From Clostridia bacterium (GTDB lineage: Bacteria; Bacillota; Clostridia; TANB77; CAG-465), in NCBI GenBank assembly GCA_017534305.1, contig JAFWCU010000001.1:186001-250000 (forward strand): a stretch of 64,000 nucleotides of DNA, in the 5' to 3' direction. The translations under genes and the position numbers were made by a program. Below the pieces are notes generated by a model. It was given only the letters and a program-made list of their open reading frames with translations, searched no databases and was not told the DNA's origin. Numbering within the stretch: position 1 is the stretch's first letter; every line of letters starts with the position of its first letter. Shown piece after piece: positions 56,353 to 64,000 of this stretch.

Positions 56353-57147
56353 ATGAAAAGAAATATTAAAGTATTTATTAGTATCATAATGGTGTTTGCA
56401 ATGCTTATGCTTAATTTTATGCCATTTACTGTAAATGCAGGTATTACAGATGGTGATGGACAAACTACAAGTCGTACTACTGTTGTTCCCCATTATAATG
56501 AATATAATATGTGGCAAACTCTAGATTTAATTAGTGGAGAAGATATATTTATAGATTCTGAGTATGCCTTACCTTTTGTTAAAGTATTTGGTCTAGATAA
56601 AGAAGATGTAGTCTTTCCAATTTATTATGCATATGATTCTGTTGAAGAAAAAATGGTTATATCAACTGAAGATGATGCTATATTTAAAATAATTAAACTA
56701 GATGATACACATTACCAAGTTGTTCCAGTAAATGCAGATAAATTTATTAATACTGAAGTTGAATTCTTACAAGGATGTGTAGATGAATTGTATGATTCTC
56801 ATACTTATTTTACTGGTGTAACAATTGTAGATGATAACTGGGAACCTATAGAAGACCCAAATGCTTATGTAGTAGGTGGCCATGCGATTTATGAATATAG
56901 ACGAGAAGATTACTATAATAGATATCAACTAATGCTTCAAGTAAATTATGGTACTCTTGAATATATAAAAGGAGATTTAGATGGTAATAATGTAGTAGAT
57001 GCAAATGATGCTTCTGTTGCTTTAGAACTATATAAAGCACAAAATGCTACAGCTCAAGATATACAAATAGGAGATATGGATAATAATAGTTTAATTGATG
57101 CGAATGATGCAAGTTTAATACTTGAGTATTATAAAACACATCAATAA
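56353..57147 (+). CDS. Secreted dockerin-containing protein
   Basis: 264 residues with a signal peptide (VFISIIMVFAMLMLNFMPFTVNA, cleavage after VNA), a central domain of about 170 residues without a recognised family, and a C-terminal type I dockerin (residues about 205-264). The dockerin has both calcium-binding repeats: DLDGNNVVDANDASVALELYK and DMDNNSLIDANDASLILEYYK, each with the Asp at positions 1, 3, 5 and 12. Such modules dock onto cohesins of cellulosome-like or cell-wall scaffolds. No cohesin is seen in this window. The next gene has a nearly identical dockerin. Confidence 0.9.
   Translation: MKRNIKVFISIIMVFAMLMLNFMPFTVNAGITDGDGQTTSRTTVVPHYNEYNMWQTLDLISGEDIFIDSEYALPFVKVFGLDKEDVVFPIYYAYDSVEEKMVISTEDDAIFKIIKLDDTHYQVVPVNADKFINTEVEFLQGCVDELYDSHTYFTGVTIVDDNWEPIEDPNAYVVGGHAIYEYRREDYYNRYQLMLQVNYGTLEYIKGDLDGNNVVDANDASVALELYKAQNATAQDIQIGDMDNNSLIDANDASLILEYYKTHQ
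56968..57138 (+). repeat. Dockerin cassette, copy 1
   Basis: 171 bases that align without gaps to 58009-58179, with about 14 differences by manual count. The flanking parts of the two genes are unrelated, so the cassette was copied as a module. Confidence 0.88.
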
Positions 57148-57177
57148 TCTAATTGTTATTTTAAATAATAAATTTTT

Positions 57178-57204
57178 AAAGAGGCATTTAATTGCCTCTT
57201 TTTT
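57178..57204 (+). terminator. Terminator of the first dockerin gene
   Basis: Stem AAAGAGGCA/TGCCTCTTT, loop TTTAAT, T run. Confidence 0.92.
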
Positions 57205-57237
57205 ATATTGTCATTTTACTTAATTGTTTTTTTACTG

Positions 57238-57266
57238 TTGAATAATTTTTCTCTTTGATATATTAT
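57238..57266 (+). promoter_or_regulatory. Promoter of the second dockerin gene
   Basis: TTGAAT (57238-57243), a 17-base spacer, TATTAT (57261-57266). Confidence 0.65.
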
Positions 57267-57294
57267 TTAATTGTAAGTTAATTGGGAGGCTTAT

Positions 57295-58188
57295 ATGAAA
57301 ATGTTTAAATTAAAACAAAAAATATTATTATTTGTTATTTTTGGCATGATATTTAGCTTGATTCCTTTTACTAGTGTTAAATGTTATGCTGAGCAAGGAG
57401 ATATATATGAAGTATTTGCTACATCTAATATAGATGATTTTGTTCCTGTAGTAAATAAAACTATTACTATTCCAAGAATTATTGTTACAACTGATAATGT
57501 GCAATTAAATCCAAATGCATGTTATTGGCAAAAGCAAAAAGGTGGTAGATGGTCTTATTATAGCAAAAACGTATTTGAAGAAGGTACATATAGGTATCAT
57601 TATTCATTTTTTATTCCTGAAAATGTAGGAAAGTTTGCTAAATATGTGTTAACATCTTTAGATGGATATACAATTTCAATGGAGTCAACATATGAAGCAG
57701 GTAAAGGTTATTATCTTTCGGGATTTTCAAAAGAATATGCAGCACAAACATCCGTTCTTGTATCACATAAAGTAGTATTTGACTCAAAAGGTGGTACTCC
57801 TATTAGTACTAAATATATTGAGCACGGACAAAGAATATTATCTCATGGTACACCATATAGAGAAGGATATACTTTCTTAGGATGGTATTGGAAACCAAAG
57901 AATAAAGATACTGGTTTAGAAGAAGCTGAAAGGTTATTTGATTTTTCTTTAGCTGTTGAAGATGACATTTATATGTATGCTAAATGGTTAGAAAATGGTT
58001 CATATGTTAAAGGTGATATGGACCGTAATAATGTAGTAGATGCAAATGATGCTTCTGTTGTTCTAGAATTATATAAAGCACAAAATGCTACAGCTCAAGA
58101 TATACAAATAGGTGATATGGATAATAATAACTTAATTGATGCGAATGATGCAAGTTTAATACTTGAGCTATATAAAACAAATAACTAA
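57295..58188 (+). CDS. Secreted protein with an InlB-type repeat and a dockerin
   Basis: 297 residues. A signal peptide (FVIFGMIFSLIPFTSVKCYA) leads to a first domain of about 130 residues of unknown family. Then comes one Listeria-Bacteroides/InlB B-type repeat (about 158-235: VVFDSKGGTPISTKYIEHGQ, then EGYTFLGWYWKP and IYMYAKW). The C-terminus is a type I dockerin with both calcium-binding repeats (DMDRNNVVDANDASVVLELYK and DMDNNNLIDANDASLILELYK). The dockerin DNA is about 92% identical to that of the previous gene. It has its own promoter and terminator, and is probably displayed by a scaffoldin or wall protein encoded elsewhere. Confidence 0.9.
   Translation: MKMFKLKQKILLFVIFGMIFSLIPFTSVKCYAEQGDIYEVFATSNIDDFVPVVNKTITIPRIIVTTDNVQLNPNACYWQKQKGGRWSYYSKNVFEEGTYRYHYSFFIPENVGKFAKYVLTSLDGYTISMESTYEAGKGYYLSGFSKEYAAQTSVLVSHKVVFDSKGGTPISTKYIEHGQRILSHGTPYREGYTFLGWYWKPKNKDTGLEEAERLFDFSLAVEDDIYMYAKWLENGSYVKGDMDRNNVVDANDASVVLELYKAQNATAQDIQIGDMDNNNLIDANDASLILELYKTNN
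58009..58179 (+). repeat. Dockerin cassette, copy 2
   Basis: See 56968-57138; ungapped alignment of 171 bases. Confidence 0.88.
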
Positions 58189-59318: not shown

Positions 59319-59348
59319 TTGAAAAAAATATATCCTTTAGTATATAAT
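59319..59348 (+). promoter_or_regulatory. Promoter of the surface-fibre operon start
   Basis: TTGAAA (59319-59324), an 18-base spacer, TATAAT (59343-59348). Confidence 0.8.
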
Positions 59349-59392: not shown

Positions 59393-59560
59393 ATGGAAAG
59401 TGTAGAAATTAGTCAATATTTAAAAAATTTAAAATTCAAAAAAAGCTTTATTGGTGGTCTTGATGAAGAAGATGTTTGGAAAAAGATACGTAAGCTAGAT
59501 GAAATGTATCAAAAAGAACTAGAAAATTATAAAAGAGAAAATGGTTTAGGAGATAAATAA
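59393..59560 (+). CDS. Small protein with a DivIVA-like motif (55 aa)
   Basis: A 55-codon frame starts at ATG 59393, preceded by GAGGAG at normal distance, and ends two bases before the signal peptidase gene. It reads MESVEISQYLKNLKFKKSFI and then GGLDEEDVWKKIRKLDEMYQ. The pattern F-x-x-G-G-x-D-x-x-D-V and helical tail resemble the start of DivIVA/GpsB-type proteins, which bind curved membranes, but the protein is far too short to be DivIVA. It may help localise the surface-fibre or peptidase machinery. Its position, spacing and codon content support a real gene. Confidence 0.72.
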   Translation: MESVEISQYLKNLKFKKSFIGGLDEEDVWKKIRKLDEMYQKELENYKRENGLGDK

Positions 59561-59562
59561 TA

Positions 59563-60108
59563 ATGAAAAAAACTAATTTGACAGAAAGTGTTATTTCAAG
59601 TAGATTACAGGCTATATATACTAAACAAGATTTTCTAGTTCTAGTTAAAAAGATATTGGTAATTGCATTATTTTTATTTTTAGTGTTTAGATATATTTTT
59701 ACTTTTCATGTTGTTGTTGGCGATTCAATGTCTCCAAATGTTAAGAATTCAGACTTAACAGTTATATATAAAATGGATCAAAAATATAGACAAGGAGATG
59801 TAGTATTAATTTCAAAAAACGACATATCATATATAGTAAGAGTAATAGGTATGCCTGGTGATACAATACTATTTAATGAAAAAGGTGAGGTTATTCTTAA
59901 TAACGAAAAATATGAAGAAGACTATATTTTTGAAAAAACATATGCAGATAATAATACAAATACATATCCTTTAAAACTTAACTCAAACGAGTATTTTTTA
60001 CTAGGGGATAATAGAACAACATCTAAAGATAGTAGAGACTTTGGTGTTGTTTCTATAGATGAAATAAAAGGAAAAGTAATATATGTATTTAGAAATAGAG
60101 AGATATAG
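59563..60108 (+). CDS. Signal peptidase I homologue lacking the catalytic lysine
   Basis: 181 residues of the type I signal peptidase fold with one N-terminal transmembrane helix (about 30-48). The serine box is present: VVVGDSMSPN, Ser55. Where the lysine general base should be (YVKRVIGxPGD) this protein has YIVRVIGMPGD, with Val92 in place of Lys. The second structural box GDNRTTSKDSRDFG (residues 148-161) is intact. The enzyme is therefore predicted inactive as a Ser-Lys peptidase. Streptococcal pilus loci carry similar pseudo-peptidases (SipA/LepA) that act as assembly factors. A downstream terminator separates it from the following surface-protein gene, though operon read-through is possible. 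Confidence 0.85.
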   Translation: MKKTNLTESVISSRLQAIYTKQDFLVLVKKILVIALFLFLVFRYIFTFHVVVGDSMSPNVKNSDLTVIYKMDQKYRQGDVVLISKNDISYIVRVIGMPGDTILFNEKGEVILNNEKYEEDYIFEKTYADNNTNTYPLKLNSNEYFLLGDNRTTSKDSRDFGVVSIDEIKGKVIYVFRNREI

Positions 60109-60128
60109 TTAAATATCTCTCTTTATTT
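60098..60128 (+). terminator. Hairpin terminator overlapping the signal peptidase gene's stop
   Basis: A 9-bp stem GAGAGATAT/ATATCTCTC, loop AGTTAA, then TTTATTTATT. The T run is interrupted, so termination may be partial. Confidence 0.72.
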
Positions 60129-60220
60129 ATTGCTAGTTATTTTATATTATAATATTATTATAGTTAAATTACAAAAAAGTAACAATTTGTGTGGGGTGTA
60201 CTATATCTTTGTGCATTTAA

Positions 60221-60250
60221 TTGAATAATTAATAATAAATGTGGTATTAT
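60221..60250 (+). promoter_or_regulatory. Promoter of the large surface protein gene
   Basis: TTGAAT (60221-60226), an 18-base spacer, TATTAT (60245-60250) with extended TGG. Confidence 0.65.
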
Positions 60251-60293
60251 TTTTTTGTAAAATAGAGAATTAATAAGTAAAGAGGCTGAAAAT

Positions 60294-63200
60294 ATGGAAA
60301 AGAATAAGAATAAAAGTTTGAAGTTTTTAACTCTTTTTATAGCCTTTCTAATTATCACTATAGTGAATAATTGTAATAAAGAACTTTATGCTGAAGGTAC
60401 TCGTGATTTAGCCGCGACACCAGATAGCAATGGAGTTTGGAGCTATAATAAGGGGTATAGACCATTTTTTGATTGTTGTAGTAAGACAACTGCCGGTATT
60501 AAAAGAGAGCAAGAATTATATGTTTATGCCAAAAAAGGTGAGACAATTCTTTTTGGAAGCTCTGTATACAATACAGTGTCAACTTTAAATGACGGCCATG
60601 AAGTTGTTGTTATACTACCTAATGGTAGAAGAGAAAATTTTGATATTACAAATGGTGGCGTTGGTAATATTAATACTCAAGTTAAGGAATTAAATGGTCC
60701 AAATTATGGAGATAAAACTGAAGGATATGATCCTTTATCTATCTATATTGATGGTACAGAACATCAAGAAGGTATATACACATTTAAGTTTAGCTCAAGA
60801 AACTATAGAGAGATTCAATATTATTCTTTCCTTAAAAATGTTGATGATAGTGTATTGAATCCAGCAAATGCAACTGGTCAAATTGCCTCTCTAGATATTA
60901 CTGTTATTACTGAAGAAAATGGTGTTTACACTGAACATCCAGGTAGAACATGGGCAGATTATCTTACTTTAAATACTGGTATAAACCAAAGCCCAAACCT
61001 ATATTCTGAAGTTTATGTATTAACAACTGATGGATATATTTATGAAGTTGATTTAAATGGTACAGATCCATATGGATTTATTTTCTTTGCTACAAATAGA
61101 GGTCTAATTGATACTTCTAATAATACTTCTTTATATATGTCTGTATTTGCAAAGAATAATGAGTGTTCAAATCCTACATATACAAAATTTGGTGAAGTAG
61201 TACCAGTTCAATTCCATAGACCTAATGCATCAAATACTAAATATGATAAAACGTATAAAATATTCTTTAATAATCCTTCAGCGGATTTACCACAATATAT
61301 AAAACCTAAAGCATATGAACCTGGTTCTATTACTAATATCTATTTTAGAGGTATAAATTCAACTGAAGGACTTGGAAGAGTCGGAGAAGGTGGATATTTC
61401 CACTTCCATGTTGAAAATGCAACATCTTACGAATTAAAATTAGATTTTGATGATATGACTGCTGCTAAAAAAGACGATCAAGGTAATTATGTTTTAGATG
61501 AAGAAGGACATAAAATACAAGAGAGAATTCAGGCTGTAGATAGATTAAATAGAAAAATATTTACTGATCCTGATGGAAATGAAGTTGCATTTAATAAGTA
61601 TGAATTAAAAAATTTACCAAATCCTGAAGATTATACACCTGTATACATTGGTGGCGTAGTATACTTAAGAAACTCATGTACAGATGGAGAAAATAATGTT
61701 TACTGGGATGGACGTGATGGAAATGGTCATTACTTACCAGAAGGCAAGTATGGTGGTGAAGATTCAAAATTTAAATTAACTGTTACACCAAAAGCTGGTG
61801 AGTATCACTTTGTAATGCTAGACGTTGAAAATAACGTTAATGGTACAAAGATTAAAATGATTGGAGATATATACGATTCTAACGAGGATCTAGTTGAAAT
61901 TAGTGATGAAGTTAGAAGTACAGTTTATTACAATAATAATAACCCTGAATTATTACTAAAAGGTCAACAAGAGAAAAAGCCTAGTGCTAGACCATATTGT
62001 TCACCAGATCATGATAAAACAACAGATGGTGTTGTAACTTTAGGTAGAGTTGGTGCTTCTCCTTATGTTGGAAATCTTGGAGATTCAAACCTAATGGATC
62101 TTTGGACATATATTAAAAGACAAACAGATGATTTGGATATTGCAACTCTTGCAGAATTCACTTTAGTTGCACAACCTGAACCTGATCCTGATGATCCGGA
62201 TTATCCTAATTATCCTCCTTCTGTAAAAGGTACTATAACTGGTAAGGTATTTTTTGATTCACAAGATGATGGCGGATCAATGAATTTATCTGAAGGAGAT
62301 TATGCATTAGATGAAGTAGAAGTTAAACTATATATGTTTACTTTAGATCCAGATACCGGAGATTTTGTTGAAGAAGAATTATATACTACAACAACTGATG
62401 CTCTGGGAGATTACTATTTTGCAAATTTGGATTTAAATGATGAAAATTCATATTATGAGGTTAGAGTATCAAGCCCAAATAGTTACGCTCACTGTACTAC
62501 AGATAATCAAACAATTTCTAATATAAAAATTTTATATGATAAAGATAATCCTGATGATATTAGTCAATTAGATATTAAAAATGATGATGTTGGATTTTGC
62601 TGGTCAGTAAAAACTATAACATTAAATAAACAATGGCTTCTTACTGATGTGCTTCCTAAGAAAATAAGAATTAATGTTTTGGCTTTTGATAATCAAGGAC
62701 GTCATATACTTCAAGATGATGGCCAAGGTAATCTTCAACCAGTATATGATGTATTAGGAGTTGAAGTTACTGCAGCAAATGGTTGGGTAACATCTCTACA
62801 TTTAAATGAAAAAGATACAGATGGTAATTATATTACATATTATCCTGAGTATGAAGAAGTTCTTACTGTAGATGGCCTAGGAAATGAAGTATGGTTAACA
62901 GCAAATGAAGCAGGTTACGATTATGATATAGTACCTCCTTTAAATGATGTTACTCCTATTACTTCAAAGATAGCATATAATATTGTTAATAGAAAAAGAT
63001 GTATTGAGGTAGAAAAAGTTCTAGATAGACGTGTAGATAAAGATGAAGGCGAAACATTCTCATTTAAACTAATTGATAATACTGATTCTACAGAAGAAAT
63101 AGTTACTATTAACATACCAAAAGGTGAATATAAAGAATCTATAATTATTTATGATGTAGTAAGTGATCATAACTATACTATAAAAGAAGTAAATATTCCT

Positions 63201-63857
63201 GGTGAATATGATTTTGATCCAGATAATAGTTATATGATAGTAAATGACGTTGATCAATCAACACCTACACTAAATAATGAAGAATATCAATTTTCTTTTG
63301 AATATGAATCTTCAAACAAATACAAAATATGTTTCCATAACGATTATAAAAGATCTAATTTAATAGTATCTAAAACTGTTTTAGGTAACAAGGGCGATAC
63401 TACAAAAGATTTTGAATATACTTTTAATTTTAATACTGCTGAATCATTTACTGGTATTAAAACATTAAAAGATGGTACAAATACAGAAGTTACAATTAAA
63501 AATAATTCTAAATTTACACTAAAAGATGGTGAAATGATTGTAATACAAAACCTTCCATATCACTATACATATAGTGTTGAAGAAGGCGACTACACATCAT
63601 TAGATGGTTATACAACAACTGTAAATGATGTTGAATCAAATAGATATGAAGGTGTAGTTGAGCTTGATGATCAAACGTTAGAGTTTAAAAACACACTAGA
63701 CGCAGACTCTCTTTTAGGAGTTGAGACCGAAGAAACTCACTCATTTAAGATAGTTTATGTTTTAGTAATGTTTTTAACTATATATTTAATATTATTTGTT
63801 AGAAAAGCAAAGCGAAAAGAATTTGCTAAAGAAACAGATAATAATTTTAAAAGATAG
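60294..63857 (+). CDS. Large secreted surface protein with SdrD-B/Cna-B-type domains
   Basis: 1187 residues. A signal peptide (FLTLFIAFLIITIVNN, about 10-33) leads to an about 600-residue N-terminal region without clear family, likely the exposed binding part. Residues about 640-760 are a SdrD-B-like domain (GTITGKVFFDSQDDGG through YYFANLDLN). Two Cna-B/DUF7601-like segments follow (about 900-1015 and 1020-1135: RCIEVEKVL and RSNLIVSKTVLGNKGDTTKDF). The C-terminus is a membrane helix (IVYVLVMFLTIYLILFVRK, about 1151-1169) with a basic tail, but no LPxTG-like motif precedes it. It lies between a pseudo-signal-peptidase gene and another secreted protein, so a pilus or fibre tip/shaft role is likely. 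Confidence 0.85.
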   Translation: MEKNKNKSLKFLTLFIAFLIITIVNNCNKELYAEGTRDLAATPDSNGVWSYNKGYRPFFDCCSKTTAGIKREQELYVYAKKGETILFGSSVYNTVSTLNDGHEVVVILPNGRRENFDITNGGVGNINTQVKELNGPNYGDKTEGYDPLSIYIDGTEHQEGIYTFKFSSRNYREIQYYSFLKNVDDSVLNPANATGQIASLDITVITEENGVYTEHPGRTWADYLTLNTGINQSPNLYSEVYVLTTDGYIYEVDLNGTDPYGFIFFATNRGLIDTSNNTSLYMSVFAKNNECSNPTYTKFGEVVPVQFHRPNASNTKYDKTYKIFFNNPSADLPQYIKPKAYEPGSITNIYFRGINSTEGLGRVGEGGYFHFHVENATSYELKLDFDDMTAAKKDDQGNYVLDEEGHKIQERIQAVDRLNRKIFTDPDGNEVAFNKYELKNLPNPEDYTPVYIGGVVYLRNSCTDGENNVYWDGRDGNGHYLPEGKYGGEDSKFKLTVTPKAGEYHFVMLDVENNVNGTKIKMIGDIYDSNEDLVEISDEVRSTVYYNNNNPELLLKGQQEKKPSARPYCSPDHDKTTDGVVTLGRVGASPYVGNLGDSNLMDLWTYIKRQTDDLDIATLAEFTLVAQPEPDPDDPDYPNYPPSVKGTITGKVFFDSQDDGGSMNLSEGDYALDEVEVKLYMFTLDPDTGDFVEEELYTTTTDALGDYYFANLDLNDENSYYEVRVSSPNSYAHCTTDNQTISNIKILYDKDNPDDISQLDIKNDDVGFCWSVKTITLNKQWLLTDVLPKKIRINVLAFDNQGRHILQDDGQGNLQPVYDVLGVEVTAANGWVTSLHLNEKDTDGNYITYYPEYEEVLTVDGLGNEVWLTANEAGYDYDIVPPLNDVTPITSKIAYNIVNRKRCIEVEKVLDRRVDKDEGETFSFKLIDNTDSTEEIVTINIPKGEYKESIIIYDVVSDHNYTIKEVNIPGEYDFDPDNSYMIVNDVDQSTPTLNNEEYQFSFEYESSNKYKICFHNDYKRSNLIVSKTVLGNKGDTTKDFEYTFNFNTAESFTGIKTLKDGTNTEVTIKNNSKFTLKDGEMIVIQNLPYHYTYSVEEGDYTSLDGYTTTVNDVESNRYEGVVELDDQTLEFKNTLDADSLLGVETEETHSFKIVYVLVMFLTIYLILFVRKAKRKEFAKETDNNFKR

Positions 63858-63872
63858 GGGAAGAGGTAAATT

Positions 63873-64000
63873 ATGAAAAAGATATTTATGACATTAACTG
63901 TTATGCTTTTAGGAATTGTTATGATGCTAGCACCTAATGCATATGCGGTAAGTAATCCAGAAAATTTAACTCCAGCTACTGGAACAATTACTTTTGATAA
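63873..64000 (+). CDS. Secreted protein, 3' end outside the window (probable fibre subunit)
   Basis: An open frame from ATG 63873 (GAGG upstream, 15 bases after the previous stop) runs off the window after 42 codons. It begins with a signal peptide ending in NAYA and continues with SNPENLTPATGTITFD. It is the next gene of the surface-protein group and may be the major pilin. The family cannot be told from this length. Confidence 0.7.
   Translation, partial: MKKIFMTLTVMLLGIVMMLAPNAYAVSNPENLTPATGTITFD

What the first reader, a model, noticed from the sequence alone, without database searches (positions are those of the whole stretch)
59563..64000. Pilus-like locus with a pseudo-signal peptidase (Ser kept, Lys replaced by Val)
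The signal peptidase homologue keeps Ser55 but has Val92 at the lysine position, while the other boxes are intact. It precedes a 1187-residue surface protein without LPxTG and another secreted protein. In streptococci, SipA-type pseudo-peptidases lack both catalytic residues and chaperone pilus assembly; here only the lysine is lost and the main subunit lacks a sorting motif. The locus may assemble a fibre by an unusual route.
Basis: partly seen in the sequence, partly recalled or inferred. Interest (0 to 1): 0.65.

Follow-up and report, generated by a model that had tools for sequence, protein, structure and literature searches.

The report
Dead signal peptidase in sortase-pilus locus
A gut Clostridia genome carries an ordinary sortase-built pilus locus whose signal-peptidase look-alike has lost its catalytic lysine, as nearly all its pilus-linked relatives have; a small, apparently undescribed gene just upstream may mark where the pilus is built.

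Summary
In detail: window 59563-60108 encodes an S26 signal-peptidase-like protein (Sip) with Ser55 kept and Val92 at the catalytic Lys position. The proposed unusual, sorting-signal-free route does not. The window stops mid-locus: the same contig continues with an FctA-like major pilin (IDTG sorting signal) and a class B sortase. Sip, sortase, pilin and the ancillary protein's C-terminus all have Streptococcus pyogenes FCT-pilus proteins as best solved-structure relatives. This is an FCT/PI-2-type pilus in a gut Clostridia lineage; the protein is a deep-branching SipA-clade pseudo-peptidase. The Lys loss is not recent: a 64%-identical orthologue has Leu, and of 44 Lys-less homologues 40 have a class B sortase downstream, against 0 of 52 Lys-bearing ones. 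With catalytic columns masked, 34 of them plus S. pyogenes SipA form one clade with one Lys loss and at least five Ser changes. 'Ser kept, Lys lost' recurs (at least 10 loci). New lead: a 55-aa DivIVA-like gene directly upstream recurs beside clostridial Sips, and Sips beside it carry a fixed-position cytoplasmic N-terminal motif (28 of 33) absent from those without it (0 of 57). It may be a spatial partner of SipA-type proteins; untested.

The parts
59319..59348 (+). promoter-like site (TTGAAA-18-TATAAT) upstream of the small ORF
   Evidence: 11 of 12 consensus matches; the stretch is largely conserved in the congener L054. Consensus match only; the scan found no more such sites than chance gives.
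59393..59560 (+). 55-aa DivIVA-like small protein, stop codon 2 nt before the sip start codon
   Evidence: Conserved directly upstream of sip in the congener (75% identity, dN/dS 0.14) and in 23 of 44 Lys-less Sip loci. DivIVA resemblance is by motif and through a longer relative that passes the Pfam DivIVA cut-off.
59563..60108 (+). sip: SipA-type pseudo-signal peptidase, 181 aa, Ser55 kept, catalytic Lys replaced by Val92
60097..60122 (+). terminator-like hairpin overlapping the sip stop codon
   Evidence: 10-pair A+T-rich stem; 0 expected in shuffles; stem kept in part in the congener
60294..63857 (+). ancillary (tip-type) pilin, 1187 aa, signal peptide, C-terminal isopeptide-type DUF7601 domain, degenerate sorting signal V1143-E-T-E, TM segment and basic tail
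63874..64000 (+). start of the FctA-like major pilin (367 aa; continues on the contig to the position equivalent to window 64977; then class B sortase, 246 aa, equivalent to 64984-65724)

Best explanation
The locus (small DivIVA-like gene, sip, ancillary pilin, FctA-like major pilin, class B sortase) builds a covalently polymerised pilus of the FCT/PI-2 type. Sip is a SipA-clade, proteolytically inactive signal-peptidase homologue: an N-terminal membrane helix holds a signal-peptidase fold outside the membrane, and its peptide-binding cleft holds the newly secreted pilin or its sorting signal for the class B sortase. The housekeeping signal peptidase, encoded elsewhere in the genome, removes the signal peptides. 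Shown here: gene content and order, family relationships, residue states and their conservation, predicted fold, link to class B sortase. Inferred: that pili form, that Sip does not cleave, and its chaperone or scaffold role (a need for SipA in polymerisation is demonstrated only for streptococci).
For: Downstream FctA-like pilin (PF12892, PF24547; IDTG signal) and class B sortase (TIGR03064, 196 bits over a 154 cut-off). Best solved relatives: Sip to SipA 4n31 (E 1e-16), ahead of SpsB (2e-12); sortase to 3psq (1.6e-42; recognised from memory as Spy0129, the S. pyogenes FCT pilus sortase); pilin and ancillary C-terminus to FCT T-antigens. Predicted fold (pLDDT 92): best match SipA, Z 21.0, rmsd 1.7 over 135 residues; next SpsB, Z 17.1. 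Lys absent in the window protein and all eight full-length genus homologues. Of 44 Lys-less Sips, 40 have a class B sortase downstream; 0 of 52 Lys-bearing ones do. With catalytic columns masked, 34 Lys-less Sips plus S. pyogenes SipA form one clade (SH-aLRT 95; one Lys change). The genome has a separate intact signal peptidase. SipA is essential for polymerisation, shows no peptidase activity and tolerates mutation of the residue at the Ser position (PMC4049620).
Against: No experiment on this organism. Ser55 and the whole of box E are intact, so a residual or alternative hydrolytic activity cannot be excluded from sequence. Sip is the least constrained gene of the locus (dN/dS 0.39). In the larger tree (95 rows) the best tree did not hold the Lys-less Sips together, though holding 43 of them (the unrelated L163 included) with SipA was not rejected (p-AU 0.20).
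Confidence: 0.85

Rival explanations
1. Sip is still a pilus-dedicated signal peptidase: Ser55 works with another base (Lys85, or a lysine supplied by the substrate) and trims the pilins.
For: Ser55 and box E intact; Lys85 invariant in the nine genus sequences. In S. suis a pilus SipF has both residues (PMC2797073).
Against: In the model Lys85 ends the strand before a turn and Val92 lies mid-strand, so by inference Lys85 is far from Ser55 (coordinates not measured). Ser changes at least five times in the same clade while the locus type stays. S. pyogenes SipA is inactive and tolerates mutation of its near Lys83 (PMC4049620).
Confidence: 0.08
2. The Lys-to-Val change is a recent inactivating mutation and sip is decaying.
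For: Highest dN/dS of the locus, 0.39.
Against: The 64%-identical orthologue has Leu at the site; the sortase-linked clade lacks Lys throughout; the ORF is intact and under purifying selection.
Confidence: 0.02
3. One reading: a fibre assembled by an unusual route, without sortase and sorting motifs.
For: The ancillary protein has only a degenerate VETE signal (VDTQ in the congener).
Against: A class B sortase with Cys226, Arg235 and the His of YGHH, and a pilin with IDTG at the position of VPTG/APTG in relatives, follow directly.
Confidence: 0.02

Closest known systems
SipA/LepA of S. pyogenes FCT-2/3/4 pilus loci (PDB 4n31; PMC4049620) and its PI-2/PI-2b counterparts
   Same: Signal-peptidase fold without a complete Ser-Lys dyad, same clade, next to FctA-type pilin and class B sortase; Lys position not Lys
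   Different: Ser kept (SipA has Asp48/Gly85); box E intact; the gene lies before the ancillary gene, whereas in S. pyogenes (order from memory) sipA lies between cpa and fctA; preceded by a DivIVA-like gene, with a matching N-terminal motif in the Sip
FCT-type class B sortase pilus (cpa-sipA-fctA-srtC-fctB)
   Same: Ancillary protein, SipA-type protein, FctA-type pilin with two isopeptide-type domains, class B sortase
   Different: Sorting signals IDTG and VETE instead of VPTG-type; no FctB-like basal pilin found in this locus or in the congener's, though small secreted proteins with a C-terminal anchor follow the sortase in other relatives; ancillary N-terminal half not recognised
S. suis SipF (PMC2797073)
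   Same: Signal peptidase homologue inside a pilus cluster
   Different: SipF has both catalytic residues and a class C sortase, and polymerisation did not require it
DivIVA/GpsB
   Same: Short motif GGxDExDVWxKIxxLxxxY resembles the DivIVA N-terminal GYDxxxV motif
   Different: The window protein is 55 aa and does not reach the Pfam cut-off itself; of the ten longer relatives scanned, one (L073) does

Membership tests
SipA-type pilus assembly factor | S26 signal-peptidase fold with single N-terminal membrane helix and small non-catalytic domain | tested here: met
   model pLDDT 92; helix 3-44; Z 21.0 to 4n31 over 135 residues
SipA-type pilus assembly factor | catalytic dyad absent or incomplete | tested here: met
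   Lys replaced by Val92; Ser55 is kept, unlike S. pyogenes SipA
SipA-type pilus assembly factor | encoded with FctA-type pilin and class B sortase | tested here: met
SipA-type pilus assembly factor | groups with SipA rather than with active signal peptidases | tested here: met
   one clade, SH-aLRT 95, catalytic columns masked; weaker in the larger tree
SipA-type pilus assembly factor | required for pilin polymerisation, no peptidase activity | not testable with these tools
   needs bench work
Type I signal peptidase (active) | Ser-Lys catalytic dyad | tested here: not met
   Ser55 present, Lys absent, although NCBIfam would name it signal peptidase I
Class B sortase | TIGR03064 equivalog cut-off and catalytic residues | tested here: met
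   196 bits over 153.75; YGHH, Cys226, Arg235
FctA (Spy0128-like) major pilin | FctA domain over cut-off, sorting signal, TM, basic tail | tested here: met
   PF12892 28.9 over 22.1 bits; IDTG; TM and KSKKNK tail
DivIVA (window small ORF) | Pfam PF05103 over gathering cut-off | tested here: not met
   the window protein does not reach it; relative L073 does at 36.5 over 28 bits; profile comparison with the genome's own DivIVA-like proteins E 0.006, probability 6%

The most novel reading that the evidence does not exclude
The small DivIVA-like protein binds the cytoplasmic N-terminal motif of Sip ([IVAL][IL]xx[RK], starting 43 residues before box B) and places this membrane scaffold, and thus pilus assembly by the class B sortase, at a defined site such as the septum or pole. 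The DivIVA-like/Sip pair is then an old module, also seen with catalytically intact Sips, that pilus loci took over with loss of catalysis.
Probability: 0.4. Interest if true: 0.68.

Novelty: new variant of a known kind. Interest (0 to 1): 0.45.

Why it matters
What SipA does, and how sortase-built pili are organised in space, are stated as open in the 2021 review of streptococcal pili (PMC7900414). The broad clostridial set shows that loss of the lysine, not of the serine, is the shared mark of the pilus-linked proteins, which argues against any Ser-based chemistry. The recurring DivIVA-like gene with a matching N-terminal motif offers a concrete, testable partner for a protein whose binding partners have escaped pull-down assays.

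Tried and rejected
Structure of the ancillary protein's N-terminal 606 residues: only three aligned sequences, pLDDT 31, not used. DivIVA membership of the 55-aa protein by Pfam, NCBIfam, solved structures and profile comparison: below cut-offs or weak. Formal test of gene-motif covariation on the tree: pairs agree, but only 2 independent pairs lie on well-supported branches, so no significance. The clade looked firmer in the smaller set than in the enlarged one. Papers linking DivIVA with pilus signal peptidases: none found in the held open-access library.

Full report
What is in the sequence. The ORF at 59563-60108 encodes a 181-aa S26 signal-peptidase-like protein with Ser55 in box B (GDSMSP), Val92 where signal peptidases have the catalytic Lys (SYIVRVIG; the genome's own housekeeping enzyme has SYIKRVIG), and an intact box E, GDNRTTSKDSR. 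Two bases upstream ends a 55-aa ORF (59393-59560). Downstream lie a 1187-aa secreted protein (60294-63857) and the start of another secreted protein.

The locus continues beyond the window. The same contig runs 1.8 kb further and holds an FctA-like pilin of 367 aa (FctA and DUF7601 domains; C-terminal IDTG, TM segment and basic tail) and a class B sortase of 246 aa over the TIGR03064 cut-off with its His, Cys and Arg. Pilin residues K43/E133/N192 and K204/E282/N322 are placed as isopeptide triads (by inspection, positions). The congener L054 has the same five genes in the same order. Sip, sortase, pilin and the C-terminal part of the ancillary protein each have FCT-pilus proteins of S. pyogenes as best relatives among solved structures: SipA 4n31 for Sip, 3psq for the sortase (recognised from memory as Spy0129), T-antigens for pilin and ancillary C-terminus. 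This is therefore an FCT/PI-2-type sortase pilus locus, not a sortase-free fibre system. Sorting signals are unusual: IDTG in the pilin, VETE (VDTQ in the congener) in the ancillary protein, against APTG or VPTG in other genus members.

Is the Lys loss real and old? The window protein and eight full-length homologues in the genus all lack Lys (V, L, G, S); Ser is kept only in the window protein and its 64%-identical orthologue, the others having N, A or D. In 80 named loci from a genome collection plus further relatives, Lys-less Sips have a class B sortase downstream and Lys-bearing ones do not (L062 and its copy L054 also have it, at 4.85 kb). An additional sample drawn from the class gave ten more Lys-less Sips, nine with a class B sortase. 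Together: 40 of 44 Lys-less, with two more on contigs that end too early to tell (L071, L101) and two exceptions (L083, L163), against 0 of 52 Lys-bearing. With the two catalytic columns masked, 34 Lys-less Sips and S. pyogenes SipA form one clade (SH-aLRT 95) needing one Lys change and at least five Ser changes, with the window pair at the deepest split when rooted on a Lys-bearing sequence. In a larger tree without the N-terminus, and with the unrelated L163 included, support is weaker but monophyly is not rejected (p-AU 0.20). Ser kept with Lys lost also occurs in L072, L079, L081, L089, L090, L093, L150, L154 and L156, so it is a recurrent, probably less-decayed state. All five genes of the locus are under purifying selection (dN/dS 0.14 to 0.39, sip highest).

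Fold and mechanism. The model (pLDDT 92) is a helix 3-44 followed by the signal-peptidase beta fold. Its best match is SipA (Z 21.0, rmsd 1.7, 135 residues), ahead of the active SpsB (Z 17.1). In S. pyogenes SipA is essential for polymerisation, has a conserved peptide-binding cleft and no detected activity, and mutation of the Asp48 and Lys83 equivalents has no visible effect (PMC4049620). The most likely mechanism here is the same: a membrane-anchored holder of the newly secreted pilin or its sorting signal for the class B sortase, with signal peptides removed by the separate intact signal peptidase (L007). This last part is inference.

A new lead. The 55-aa ORF is the short form of a family found directly upstream of sip. 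A profile from six genus members finds it at E 1e-35 to 1e-5 upstream of both Lys-less and some Lys-bearing Sips; in 291 genomes of the class it hit only three, two of them (the window's own included) directly upstream of a Sip. It resembles the N-terminal part of DivIVA; the 55-aa protein itself is below the Pfam cut-off, but the longer L073 relative passes it (36.5 over 28 bits). Sips beside this gene carry [IVAL][IL]xx[RK] starting exactly 43 residues before box B: 21 of 23 Lys-less and 7 of 10 Lys-bearing; Sips without the gene: 0 of 19 and 0 of 38 (L077, whose contig begins just before sip, has the motif and could not be scored). The motif pattern was written after looking at the sequences, and shared ancestry accounts for part of the agreement: only 2 independent pairs lie on well-supported branches. 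It is a hypothesis that this protein docks on the cytoplasmic end of Sip and places it in the cell. No paper linking the two was found in the held library.

Verdict. Observation confirmed, interpretation partly supported: a SipA-clade pseudo-peptidase in an ordinary class B sortase pilus locus, a new variant of a known kind. The DivIVA-like neighbour is what a specialist might not expect.

Noticed in passing
window 59393-59560; L151:1151-1600; L064:7527-7949; L078:7292-7942: DivIVA-like gene directly upstream of sip genes, short (55-67 aa) in this genus, up to about 220 aa elsewhere, also beside catalytically intact Sips, with a matching fixed-position N-terminal motif in the Sip.
   Followed up: partly
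window 60396-62213 versus L054:5127-6944: The ancillary protein's N-terminal 606 residues are 95% identical between two species whose Sip is only 64% identical; that half has no recognised Pfam domain over cut-off.
   Followed up: partly
window 56353-58188: Two secreted proteins ending in dockerin-like repeats (below the Pfam cut-off), one with a Listeria-Bacteroides repeat domain.
   Followed up: no
window 60097-60122: A+T-rich terminator-like hairpin overlapping the sip stop codon, partly kept in the congener; the small gene and sip may form their own transcription unit.
   Followed up: partly
L163:5044-5553: A Sip-like protein with Tyr at the Ser position and Arg at the Lys position, outside the SipA clade and without a class B sortase nearby: a separate loss of catalysis.
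   Followed up: no
L022 (G000:C1:132000-148601): A second locus in the same genome with two sortases and LPxTG-type surface proteins, probably a class C sortase pilus.
   Followed up: no
L021:6366-6563 (G000:C29:134366-134563): A third, partial S26 match in the genome between secreted, possibly TasA/camelysin-like genes; perhaps a SipW-type peptidase.
   Followed up: no
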